The notes under the pieces are model-generated. The model made no database searches. It was not told the DNA's origin and saw only the letters and a program-made list of their open reading frames with translations. From the NCBI GenBank assembly GCA_028688225.1, contig JAQTYQ010000017.1, positions 17,939-81,938 on the forward strand: a DNA stretch of 64,000 nucleotides, given 5' to 3'. This DNA comes from Opitutaceae bacterium (GTDB lineage: Bacteria; Verrucomicrobiota; Verrucomicrobiia; Opitutales; Opitutaceae). This document shows, in pieces, positions 13,324-64,000 of the stretch. The stretch's first letter is position 1, and the number at the start of each line of letters is the position of its first letter. The position numbers and the translations under genes are program-made.

Positions 13324-13500
13324 TTAATCGTTACGATGCTGGCGAGAGACGTGCATCCAAGGTGACGCATTGCCGCCTCTGTAGCCGGCCTCGACGGAGG
13401 CCAGTCGTCCGGGGTCGGCCGCCTTCGCGTTGCGCTTCGACGAGCCAAGGCGACCCCGGCTACAACCAACGCCAACCTCAATCGGCGTCACGGTTCGGGC
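13324..13500. mobile_element. MITE-like dispersed repeat, copy 1
   Basis: This roughly 175-bp non-coding element starts with AATCGTTACGA (13326-13336) and ends with a diverged inverted end, CGTCACGGTTCGG (13486-13498). Its core (GGCCTCGACGGAGGCCAG, CCGGGGTCGGCCGCCTTCGC, AGGCGACCCCGGCTACAACC) aligns through most of its length with the reverse complement of 60150-60323. It fills the gap upstream of malQ. Confidence 0.65.
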
Positions 13501-57541: not shown

Positions 57542-58585
57542 TTGAGTGCAAGTCGTACCATCGCCACCGAGCATCAGCTCGTTACTGCCGCTCGTGATTT
57601 CCTGCTGCAGGATCACGAATTGGCATGGCGTTTTTTGCCGGAATCCAACCCGAGTCTTGATCGCGGCTATGACGCCTTCCTGCGCCTGCGCCTGGACGGT
57701 CGTTCCCTGACTTTCGCCGTCGAATACAAGGTGGCGCTCAGTGCGCGCACCGTGCAAGCCCTCGCCGGGCGCAAGCTGTCCCACCCGCCCCTCCTTATCA
57801 CGGCGAAACTGACGGAGAACATCCTGCGGCTCTGCCGCGAACAGTGCATCAACTGCCTCGATCTTAACGGCCGAGTCTGGATTCGCCAGGACGGCGTGCT
57901 GATCGACCGCGCGGCCCGTCCGCAGGCAAATTTCAAACCGGCGCAACCGCCACCCGACGTCTTCTCGCCCAAAAGCTCGCGGCTCGTCCGCGCGCTGCTC
58001 GCCCACCAAGACCGCCTGTGGCCGCAAGCGGAGCTCGTCACCGCGACGCAACTCAGCACCGGCCTCGTGTCGCGCCTCACGCGCCATCTGCAGGACGAAG
58101 GTTACCTCCAGCGGGAAGGGCGTGCTTTCCGCGTGGTGCGCCATGGCGATTTGCTCGACGCGTGGGCGGCGCAAGACCGCTGGGCCAAGCGCGTCACGCT
58201 CCGGCAATACGCCGTGCTGGCGACGGATCTCGAAAGCCTCGCCGAAAATCTGCTGCGGGCCAGCCCCGCCGGGAGCCTCGCCTTCACGCAATGGTTCGCG
58301 GCCAACCTGCGCTTTCCCTACACCCCCGCTCCGCTGGTGTCCGCCTACGTCTCCACGTTTCCCGACGAGTCCCAGCTTGGCGCCCTCAAGGCGCGGCCGG
58401 TGAACGAAGGCGGGCGTCTTTGGCTCATCGTGCCGAACGATCGCGGAGTGTTTCACCAGCCGCGTGTCGTCCGCGATCTTCCGCTCGTCTGCGACCCGCA
58501 AATCTACCTCGACCTCCTGCCGGTCGGATTGCGCGGCCCCGATCAAGCGCAAGCCTTGCGCCAATGGGAGGATTTCTGCCGATGA
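57542..58585 (+). CDS. AbiEi-family antitoxin-like protein
   Basis: The protein has 347 residues from a TTG. The N-terminal 130 residues (LTFAVEYKVALSARTVQALAG, then LLITAKLTENILRLCREQCINCLDLNGRVWIRQDG) resemble the larger, 'type IV' AbiEi-like proteins. A winged helix follows at about 140-200 (SSRLVRALLAHQDRLWPQAELVTATQLSTGLVSRLTRHLQDEGYLQREG). It overlaps the nucleotidyltransferase gene by ATGA. In AbiE systems the antitoxin represses the operon and counters the toxin without direct binding. Confidence 0.82.
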   Translation: MSASRTIATEHQLVTAARDFLLQDHELAWRFLPESNPSLDRGYDAFLRLRLDGRSLTFAVEYKVALSARTVQALAGRKLSHPPLLITAKLTENILRLCREQCINCLDLNGRVWIRQDGVLIDRAARPQANFKPAQPPPDVFSPKSSRLVRALLAHQDRLWPQAELVTATQLSTGLVSRLTRHLQDEGYLQREGRAFRVVRHGDLLDAWAAQDRWAKRVTLRQYAVLATDLESLAENLLRASPAGSLAFTQWFAANLRFPYTPAPLVSAYVSTFPDESQLGALKARPVNEGGRLWLIVPNDRGVFHQPRVVRDLPLVCDPQIYLDLLPVGLRGPDQAQALRQWEDFCR

Positions 58586-59403
58586 CCAAATACCCGCATC
58601 ATCATGCCTACCCGGATGGCAGCACCGATCTCGCCGTCGCCGCCTTGCTGACGGTGTGGAGCTCGCTGGCCGACTATCAGGAAGACCTCGTGCTGGTGGG
58701 CGGCCTCGTGCCGAAATTCCTTTGCGCCCATCCGCCGGAAGCGCTGCCCGCCGTGACGATGGACGTGGACCTGGGCATCACGCTCGGCGCGACCGGAGGC
58801 CAATACGGCACGATCAGCTCGCATCTCCAAGGCATCGGTTTCAAGCGCGAGGAGCAGCGTTTTCGCAAAGACATCAACGGCCTGCCGCTCTTCGTCGATT
58901 TTCTCACCGAAGCCGGGAAACCCGGCCAGACGGCCGCGATGGTGGACGACGTGCCGGTCAGCTCCTTCCCCGGCGTCAACCGCGCGCTGGCCGTCCATCG
59001 CCTTGTGACCGTCAGCGGCCGGGACTTTTTCGGCGGCCAGCAGAACTGCCGCGTAAAAGTCTGCGAAATCGGCCCGTGGCTCGTCCTGAAACTGAACGCG
59101 TTTGCCCGCCGCCAGCAGCCCAAAGACGCATTCGATATTTACCAAGGCGGGCTGTACTACGACGGCGGCAACGAGCTCGCGGCCCGGCGTTTCCAAGAAG
59201 AAGCCCGGGAGAATTCGGGCTACCCGGCGACAAAAGAAGCCCTCGCCCAGTTCTTTGGTTCGCCGGAGGCGAGCGGGCCGGCCCGGTGCGTTGAATTCAT
59301 GATCGGCGGATTGCAGGGGCAAATGCCCGAGGCCGATTTTCAGTTTAGACGGGGTCAGATCATCAACGACCTGTTGGACATCGCGCGCCTTTTGTCGGGA
59401 TGA
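58582..59403 (+). CDS. AbiEii-like nucleotidyltransferase toxin candidate
   Basis: The protein has 273 residues. The nucleotidyltransferase core is visible: VLVGGLVPKFL (Gly-Gly motif) and AVTMDVDLGITL (DxD). Further family features are EIGPWLVLKLNAFARRQQPKDAFDIYQ, which parallels the 'KL.A...R...KD..DL' motif of AbiEii/GSU proteins. Such enzymes can modify tRNA or other substrates and cause phage-abortive dormancy. With the upstream gene it makes a complete-looking two-gene unit. Confidence 0.82.
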   Translation: MTKYPHHHAYPDGSTDLAVAALLTVWSSLADYQEDLVLVGGLVPKFLCAHPPEALPAVTMDVDLGITLGATGGQYGTISSHLQGIGFKREEQRFRKDINGLPLFVDFLTEAGKPGQTAAMVDDVPVSSFPGVNRALAVHRLVTVSGRDFFGGQQNCRVKVCEIGPWLVLKLNAFARRQQPKDAFDIYQGGLYYDGGNELAARRFQEEARENSGYPATKEALAQFFGSPEASGPARCVEFMIGGLQGQMPEADFQFRRGQIINDLLDIARLLSG

Positions 59404-60149: not shown

Positions 60150-60323
60150 CCGAATCGTTACGACGATTTGGTCTTGGGTTGGTTGTTGTTGCCGGGGTCG
60201 CCCTGGCTCGGCGAAGCGTGATGCGAAGACGGCCGACCCCGGATGAGCGGCCTCACCGAGGCCAGTTGCAAGTCCACGGGCTTCACCCTTGATGCGCGCT
60301 ACCAGAGGAATCCTAACGATTGG
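60150..60323. mobile_element. MITE-like dispersed repeat, copy 2
   Basis: This is the reverse-oriented relative of 13324-13500. The ends are inverted: GAATCGTTACGA (60152-60163) and TAACGATT (60314-60321). The core GCCGGGGTCGCC...GGCCGACCCCGG and GGCCTCACCGAGGCCAG match copy 1 in reverse complement. It occupies most of the gap between tRNA-Ser and nuoB. 60324-60557 holds no gene, and no nuoA. Confidence 0.65.
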
Positions 60324-60557
60324 GGCGGGCAGGATGCGCCAGGCGTCGCAGCCCGGGAGCCGGTTCTGCTGGCGGGCCGGCTGTCCCGGTCCGGGAGCCA
60401 GTTGTGAACCGGCGCCAGGGCTGCCGCAGTTATAAGAAATTGCGCGTGATCGGGGCAGGACGATGAAAGTAAAACGCGTTAATGGGCTGCCGGAACAAAA
60501 CCTACTTGCGCGACTAGGGGGGGGTGCTAGCTTGATGCGTTCTTGTTGGAACTGCCC

Positions 60558-61067
60558 ATGGTATCCCCGAACCCAGAGCTCAATTACGATAGCAAGATCG
60601 AGGGGGATATGGTCGTCTCCCGGCTGGATGCGGTCATCAACTGGATTCGCACCAACTCGATGTGGCCCATGCCCATGGGCCTGGCTTGCTGCGCCATCGA
60701 ACTCATGGCCGTCGCCGCGGCGCGCTTCGACATCGCCCGCTTCGGGGCCGAGGTGATGCGTTTTTCGCCCCGCCAGTCCGACTGCATGATCGTGGCCGGC
60801 ACGGTCACCTACAAGATGGCGCCGCATGTCCGTCGGATTTACGACCAGATGGCGGCGCCCAAATGGGTCATCGCCATGGGCGCCTGCGCCAGCACCGGCG
60901 GCATGTATCGCAGCTACGCGGTGCTGCAGGGCGTGGACCGGATCGTCCCCGTGGACGTCTATGTGAGTGGATGTCCGCCCCGGCCGGAGGCCCTGCTGGA
61001 CGCGCTCATGAAATTGCAGGCCAAAGTCCGCCGGGAGCCGGCGGCGCGACGGCTTTTCAGCGCTTGA
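60558..61067 (+). CDS. nuoB: NADH-quinone oxidoreductase subunit B
   Basis: The protein has 169 residues from the ATG at 60558. It carries the N2 4Fe-4S cluster of complex I: the tandem cysteines in GLACCAIEL, the third in [10 protein letters not shown], and the fourth in [11 protein letters not shown] are all present. [23 protein letters not shown] is family-typical. It is the first nuo gene in this cluster, with no nuoA upstream; nuoC follows after 22 bp. Confidence 0.97.
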
Positions 61068-61089: not shown

Positions 61090-61710
61090 ATGACCGTCAC
61101 CGCCGACGTTGCCGCCGTACTGAAGGAGCAATTCCCGCAGGTCACCGGGCGTGAAAGCCTCGACTGGCCGGCCTTCAACGTTCCGGCCGGCCAGGTCATG
61201 GCCGTCTTGCAGTGCCTGCGCGACGCAGGCGCCTTTGACATGCTCGTGGATGTGACGGCCATCGACGGGGGCCCCGGCCGGTCGCCGCGTTTCACCGTGG
61301 TGTGGCATCTGTTTTCAATCTTGCGCCAGACCTATGTGCGGGTCGCCGCCGACTGCACCGACGACACCCGGCCGGTCATGCCCAGCGCCACCGGCCTCTG
61401 GCCCGCCGCCAACTGGCACGAGCGCGAAACCTACGATATGTTCGGCATCGCCTTCACCGGGCATCCGGATCTCCGACGTATTTTGATGTGGGAGGGATAT
61501 CCGTATTTTCCGCTGCGCAAGGATTTCCCGCTGGCGGGCCTCGAGACCGAGCTGCCGGACCTGGCGGTGGTCGATGAGACCGGCGCCAAGGTCAAACCGG
61601 CGCCCTACATGGGCGGGCCGTTCGTGGCCGCGCCGGGCCGGACCATGGACGAGGCCGAGCCCCGCGCCGGAGACCAAAGCTGGACGGAGCATCAGGAGAA
61701 ACCCCTGTAA
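61090..61710 (+). CDS. nuoC: NADH-quinone oxidoreductase subunit C
   Basis: The protein has 206 residues. The 30-kDa subunit signature is clear: WHERETYDMFGIAFTGHPDLRRILMWEGYPYFPLRKDFPL. It is part of the peripheral arm and contacts NuoD and NuoB. The C-terminal tail (about 40 residues, KVKPAPYMGGPFVAAPGRTM) is longer than the shortest family members. It is separate from NuoD here, unlike the NuoCD fusion of enterobacteria. Confidence 0.95.
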   Translation: MTVTADVAAVLKEQFPQVTGRESLDWPAFNVPAGQVMAVLQCLRDAGAFDMLVDVTAIDGGPGRSPRFTVVWHLFSILRQTYVRVAADCTDDTRPVMPSATGLWPAANWHERETYDMFGIAFTGHPDLRRILMWEGYPYFPLRKDFPLAGLETELPDLAVVDETGAKVKPAPYMGGPFVAAPGRTMDEAEPRAGDQSWTEHQEKPL

Positions 61711-63496: not shown

Positions 63497-64000
63497 ATGA
63501 GCCGTCCGGCCACCGACCTGCTTTTCACCTACGGGACGCTCCGCCGCGCCGCCGGGAACGCCGCGCACCGGCTGCTGGCCGACCGGGCGGAGATCGTCGG
63601 CCCCGGTTTTGTGCGTGGCCGGCTGTATCAGGCGACCGATTTTCCGGTGCTCGTGATCGACCCGCAGGGCGTCAAAGTCACCGGCGAGGTCTACCGGGTG
63701 TCCGTTCCCCATGCGGTTTTTGTGCGGCTCGACCAGTACGAGGGCTTCGATCCGGCCTCACCCGACACGAGCGAGTTCCGCCGCGACCTCGTGCCGGTCA
63801 CCCTGAGCGACGGCCGCACCGTCACGGCTTGGGCCTATGTTTACCAGCGCCCGCTGTTCGACCTGCAGCCGATCCCGCACGGCGATTACGCCCGATACCT
63901 CCGGAAAACACCGGACCCGCCCACGACTGACGCCGACCATCTTCCCGCCATGCCGCATCCCGCCGAACGCCGCCTGATCTTCCGGCACATTGATGAGCCC
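63497..64000 (+). CDS. Gamma-glutamylcyclotransferase-like domain fused in frame to NuoF N-terminus (partial)
   Basis: The frame is open from the ATG at 63497 to the window end. Residues 1-135 are AIG2/GGCT-like: LLFTYGTLRRAAGN (the YGTL loop), GRLYQATDFPVLV, and VRLDQYEGFDP with the catalytic-position Glu. A linker (RKTPDPPTTDADHLPA) leads without a stop to MPHPAERRLIFRHIDEP, which looks like the start of NuoF. An internal ATG at 63950 could start a separate NuoF. Either a fusion or two in-frame genes without a stop would be unusual. The remainder is outside the window. Confidence 0.75.
   Translation, partial: MSRPATDLLFTYGTLRRAAGNAAHRLLADRAEIVGPGFVRGRLYQATDFPVLVIDPQGVKVTGEVYRVSVPHAVFVRLDQYEGFDPASPDTSEFRRDLVPVTLSDGRTVTAWAYVYQRPLFDLQPIPHGDYARYLRKTPDPPTTDADHLPAMPHPAERRLIFRHIDEP

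What the first reader, a model, noticed from the sequence alone, without database searches (positions are those of the whole stretch)
63497..64000. A gamma-glutamylcyclotransferase domain runs in frame into the start of NuoF
Seen: no stop codon separates the YGTL/DQYEG domain from MPHPAERRLIFRHIDEP, which has the look of a NuoF N-terminus, and it sits right after nuoE where nuoF belongs. Known: NuoF is the NADH- and FMN-binding subunit; GGCT-like enzymes act on gamma-glutamyl compounds. Inference: a two-domain complex I subunit, or two genes that share a frame and use an internal start at 63950. I know of no such fusion.
Basis: partly seen in the sequence, partly recalled or inferred. Interest (0 to 1): 0.75.

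Follow-up and report, generated by a model that had tools for sequence, protein, structure and literature searches.

The report
False gene fusion from a lost base
Two neighbouring genes, one for a predicted gamma-glutamyl cyclotransferase and one resembling the NADH-binding subunit of respiratory complex I, look fused in this window because one base is absent near the tip of a contig, most likely a sequencing or assembly error; a second contig of the same genome has that base and keeps the two genes apart, so the fusion is probably not real.

Summary
But the window ends at the tip of contig C97, and its last 222 bases overlap the tip of contig C95 of the same genome. The copies are identical except that C95 has GGG where the window has GG (63903-63904). 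On C95 the cyclotransferase ends ...YLRENTGPAHD and TGA; a separate 449-aa nuoF begins 19 bases later in another frame. All 5 other same-genus genomes searched have nuoE-ggct-nuoF with a TGA after ggct and nuoF in another frame. All 77 aligned long relatives have Glu where the window's shifted frame reads Lys137. A search for fused proteins found none. Three of five contig ends tested overlap another contig imperfectly, so contig tips of this assembly are error-prone. The fusion is almost certainly an artefact; a rare real allele cannot be excluded without reads. What remains is modest: a GGACT-like gene sits between nuoE and nuoF in 6 of 6 genomes of this genus and in 3 of 5 examined genomes of another genus of the family.

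The parts
60543..61067 (+). nuoB-like gene, upstream in the same operon-like run
   Evidence: PF01058, 102.3 bits; ORF, start not tested
61090..61710 (+). nuoC-like gene
   Evidence: PF00329, 147.1 bits
61730..62962 (+). nuoD-like gene
   Evidence: PF00346, 384.2 bits
62986..63477 (+). nuoE-like gene
   Evidence: PF01257, 157.5 bits; position of the start by tblastn
63497..63930 (+). GGACT/AIG2-like gene (ggct); 144 aa and a TGA in the C95 copy, out of frame at its end in the window
   Evidence: PF06094, 83.5 bits; C95 copy and 144-aa reading
63903..63904 (+). GG in the window where contig C95 has GGG: the one-base difference that makes the frames meet
   Evidence: alignment of the two contig tips; position
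63928..63930 (+). TGA that ends ggct in the C95 copy; out of frame in the window
63950..64000 (+). first 17 codons of nuoF; the rest is on contig C95 (449 aa in all)
   Evidence: PF01512 and PF10589 in the full protein

Best explanation
The in-frame join is most likely an assembly or sequencing error: the window lacks one G that a second contig of the same genome has, and in that contig the predicted cyclotransferase gene ends at its own TGA, 19 bases before a separate nuoF. Shown: the two contig copies, two separate genes in each of five other same-genus genomes, and no fused protein in the one search made for them. Inferred: that the window's copy is the wrong one; that nuoE, ggct and nuoF are transcribed together; and that nuoF is translated from the ATG at 63950, perhaps coupled to the end of ggct, since no clear Shine-Dalgarno sequence stands before that ATG. 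Also inferred: the GGACT-like protein is a free-standing enzyme that turns a gamma-glutamyl compound into 5-oxoproline plus the freed amine or amino acid, using the conserved Glu82 and the YGTL loop, and is not part of NuoF.
For: Second contig tip with one extra G, a TGA and a complete nuoF in another frame, with a NuoG-like gene after it. Five of five other same-genus genomes: ggct ends in TGA and nuoF starts 29-122 bases later in another frame. Lys137 of the window is Glu in 77 of 77 aligned relatives, and the C95 copy has Glu. No fused protein among 785 candidates, while the same domain searched alone finds 89 relatives. Contig-tip control: 3 of 5 ends tested overlap another contig imperfectly. 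GGACT fold and motif.
Against: No reads were available, so which copy is right is judged from relatives only. The genome bin is given as 6% contaminated, so C95 and C97 could come from two strains. The ggct TGA-to-nuoF gap and tail vary among relatives, so the exact end of ggct is not fixed by conservation. For the enzyme role: in the sequence alignment to YtfP, Glu82 stands opposite an Arg, and NCBIfam gives the domain no name.
Confidence: 0.93

Rival explanations
1. Real minor allele: part of the population carries the one-base deletion, so that ggct gets an altered tail and its frame reads on into nuoF, while most NuoF would still be made from the ATG at 63950.
For: The two contig copies differ, as two strains would; the deletion spares the GGACT domain (residues 9-132) and leaves nuoF whole; the bin is 6% contaminated or mixed.
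Against: The difference lies 97 bases from the tip of C97, and C97's other tip has 6 mismatches in its first 117 bases against C27, all six reading G in C97. None of the 82 relatives that carry the C-terminal motif has such a tail.
Confidence: 0.05
2. True two-domain GGACT-NuoF subunit of complex I, fixed in this organism.
For: The joined window plus C95 frame is open for 600 aa.
Against: Two genes in different frames in 5 of 5 other same-genus genomes; C95 of the same genome has the stop; no fused protein found; an open stretch of this length is found in 75% of sampled frames.
Confidence: 0.01

Closest known systems
Gamma-glutamylamine cyclotransferase (GGACT, A2LD1) and E. coli YtfP, Pfam PF06094
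   Different: 27-32% identical in the structural alignments; lies inside a nuo operon; substrate unknown.
NuoF, NADH-binding subunit of complex I
   Same: PF01512 and PF10589, NF010120 above its cut-off, place after nuoE.
   Different: Nothing notable; TIGR01959 scores below its cut-off (531.4 against 558.65).
Indel errors in genome assemblies that shift reading frames
   Same: One-base difference in a short G run near a contig tip that changes gene boundaries.
   Different: Here it seems to join two genes rather than break one. The abstract start of PMC12007338 (search listing only) speaks of such errors in long-read assemblies; how this genome was sequenced I do not know.

Membership tests
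GGACT/AIG2-like family (PF06094) | Profile match above the curated cut-off | tested here: met
   83.5 bits against 22.8
GGACT/AIG2-like family (PF06094) | GGACT fold | tested here: met
GGACT/AIG2-like family (PF06094) | YGTL loop and catalytic Glu named for the mouse enzyme (passages of PMC2954230) | tested here: inconclusive
   YGTL (12-15) and Glu82 are invariant in 34 aligned sequences, but that Glu82 is the catalytic Glu is inferred from its place; in the YtfP alignment it faces Arg, and the other named residues were not compared
GGACT/AIG2-like family (PF06094) | Release of 5-oxoproline from gamma-glutamyl compounds | not testable with these tools
   needs an enzyme assay
NuoF | FMN/NADH-binding and 4Fe-4S domains | tested here: met
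   PF01512 160.3 bits, PF10589 93.9 bits in the C95 protein
GGACT-NuoF fusion protein | No stop between the parts in an independent copy | tested here: not met
   TGA in C95
GGACT-NuoF fusion protein | Same fusion in close relatives | tested here: not met
   0 of 5 other same-genus genomes; 0 of 3 g40 genomes with the gene
GGACT-NuoF fusion protein | Proteins of fused length in a protein database | tested here: not met
   785 candidates, 0 at E<=0.001; limited to relatives that share short words with this GGACT domain

The most novel reading that the evidence does not exclude
The fusion is false, but the gene between the two subunits is a dedicated partner of complex I: a GGACT-like enzyme kept at the nuoE/nuoF junction of a whole genus, and found at the same junction in a second genus of the family, which clears gamma-glutamyl adducts during assembly of the NADH-binding arm and whose translation is coupled to NuoF.
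Probability: 0.08. Interest if true: 0.45.

Novelty: not a real feature. Interest (0 to 1): 0.07.

Why it matters
A GGACT-NuoF fusion would have been a new kind of complex I subunit; showing that it rests on one missing base near a contig tip keeps it from being taken as one. It also shows that an apparent fusion within a few hundred bases of a contig end should be checked against overlapping contigs. The remaining fact, a GGACT-like gene inside the nuo operon of one genus, is a small lead on a little-studied enzyme family.

Tried and rejected
Rejected: a true fusion and two genes that share one frame.

Tried with little result: NuoF in viral contigs (7 stretches matched a pattern, none a relative). 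A tree to ask whether the ggct genes of g1 and g40 entered the nuo operon once or twice: each group is one supported clade, but the fork that holds both has support 32/26, so the number of origins is open. NCBIfam gave no family for the GGACT part. PADLOC gave nothing for two proteins upstream of the operon.

Literature: gamma-glutamylcyclotransferase plus NuoF is held by 1 paper of the library, where 'nuof' is an author name, Nuoffer (passages). A broader search gave 43 papers with at least 3 of 4 terms, of which 20 were listed and I saw titles and abstract starts only; none of those titles is about such a fusion. So I found no such fusion in print in these two searches; most subscription papers are not held. 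PMC2954230 was seen in passages; PMC12007338 in the listing only.

Limits of the family survey: one search found nuoF in 146 of 150 family genomes. I looked at the junction in 139 of these and not in 7 (G019, G037, G060, G138, G143, G172, G182). nuoE was in view in 137 of the 139; the gap to nuoF could be measured in 133. Three gaps over 800 bases (L061, L149, L151) held no GGACT hit. The profile used for GGACT there was built from sequences of this genus, of g40 and three distant relatives, so a very divergent GGACT gene could be missed.

Limits of the contig-tip control: six contig starts were fetched and three of them searched (C97, C98, C42); with the C97 end and the C95 start that makes five ends of 129 contigs, not a random sample.

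Full report
What the window shows. From 63497 to 64000 one frame is open. Its first part is a GGACT/AIG2-like domain (PF06094, 83.5 bits). Its last 17 residues are the start of NuoF. Upstream lie genes like nuoB, nuoC, nuoD and nuoE.

The window stops at a contig end. The window is bases 17939-81938 of contig C97, which is 81938 bases long. Its last 222 bases match the tip of contig C95, reversed, over 223 bases; the only difference is one extra G in C95, in the run at window 63903-63904. On C95 the cyclotransferase frame ends ...YARYLRENTGPAHD and TGA. The nuoF ATG (window 63950) follows after 19 bases in another frame, the NuoF protein is complete at 449 aa, and a NuoG-like gene follows. NuoF identity: PF01512 and PF10589; NF010120 above its cut-off (471.5 against 389), TIGR01959 below its own (531.4 against 558.65).

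Relatives. The cyclotransferase is in 5 of 5 other same-genus genomes. In all five it lies between nuoE and nuoF, ends in TGA, and nuoF starts 32, 32, 122, 29 and 82 bases later in another frame. In one of the five (G001, 73% complete) nuoF itself is hit in two pieces in different frames (L010), perhaps another assembly indel. A scan of named genomes gave 5 loci, Opitutia/Opitutae MAGs with like identities, probably the same five species. Of the 77 longer relatives aligned with the window's reading (P0002-P0078 of 89 found), 77 have Glu where the window reads Lys137, the first residue changed by the lost base. Of the 89, 82 carry the C-terminal motif; 81 continue RE and one GE, and these 82 end 3 to 17 residues after the motif; the other 7 lack the motif in the form searched. 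The C95 tail fits this pattern; the window's tail does not.

Search for real fusions. The joined 600-aa reading was scored on its GGACT part, so that only proteins of roughly 330-1050 aa were candidates: 785 candidates, none at E<=0.001. This reaches only relatives that share short words with this GGACT domain.

Can the tip of a contig be trusted here? Five contig ends were searched against the genome. Three overlap another contig imperfectly: C97 end with C95 (1 indel); C97 start with C27 (6 mismatches in 242 bases, all six G in C97, in its first 117 bases); C42 start with C55 (5 mismatches and 1 indel). Two do not: C95 start and C98 start. Errors at contig tips are the simple explanation; two strains in the bin (6% contamination) are the other.

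Chance. In the window 6865 of 9136 sampled 48-base frame stretches lack a stop (75%), so a one-base shift before this junction gives an open frame more often than not.

How widespread is the gene order? nuoF was found in 146 of 150 family genomes; I looked at the junction in 139. Of 137 with nuoE in view, 8 have a GGACT gene between nuoE and nuoF: 5 of this genus, besides the window's own genome, and 3 of the genus labelled g40 (G044, G111, G151); G132 and G167 of g40 lack it and G182 was not looked at. In g40 the protein is 35-36% identical, matches PF06094 in the one tested, and is not in the nuoF frame. Whether the two genera share one insertion is unresolved.

Verdict. The letters are in the record, but the fusion is, on this evidence, not a feature of the organism. 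What stays open is a deletion allele in part of the population, which reads would settle.

Noticed in passing
window 63497-63930; L010, L041-L044 (same genus); L055, L056, L062 (genus g40): A GGACT-like gene stands between nuoE and nuoF in 6 of 6 genomes of this genus and 3 of 5 examined of g40 (35-36% identical between the genera); one or two insertions is unresolved.
   Followed up: partly
L187/L192 (starts of contigs C42 and C55): The overlap of these two contig tips differs by 5 mismatches and 1 indel, so other genes at contig tips of this genome may carry similar errors.
   Followed up: partly
L046, L054, L067, L055, L062, between nuoE and nuoF: In other genera of the family a short ORF of about 100 codons, hydrophobic and ending with a shared RWTGGIE-like stretch, fills the nuoE-nuoF gap (translations); in g40 it comes before the GGACT gene. 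Not searched against any library.
   Followed up: no
L003:66-154; window about 60185-60270 and 13379-13467: A dispersed repeat of up to about 88 bases: the first 500 bases of C95 hit 31 further places in the genome, 74-94% identical.
   Followed up: no
L003:17708-17857, between nuoF and the nuoG-like gene: Inverted pairs of CACTAATG-like units: 4 matches with up to 2 mismatches, none in 200 shuffles.
   Followed up: no
window 57542-58585 and 58582-59403: Two adjoining genes upstream of the nuo run: the first has a weak IclR-type helix-turn-helix match (22.9 bits, cut-off 22), the second no Pfam match; neither matches PADLOC.
   Followed up: partly
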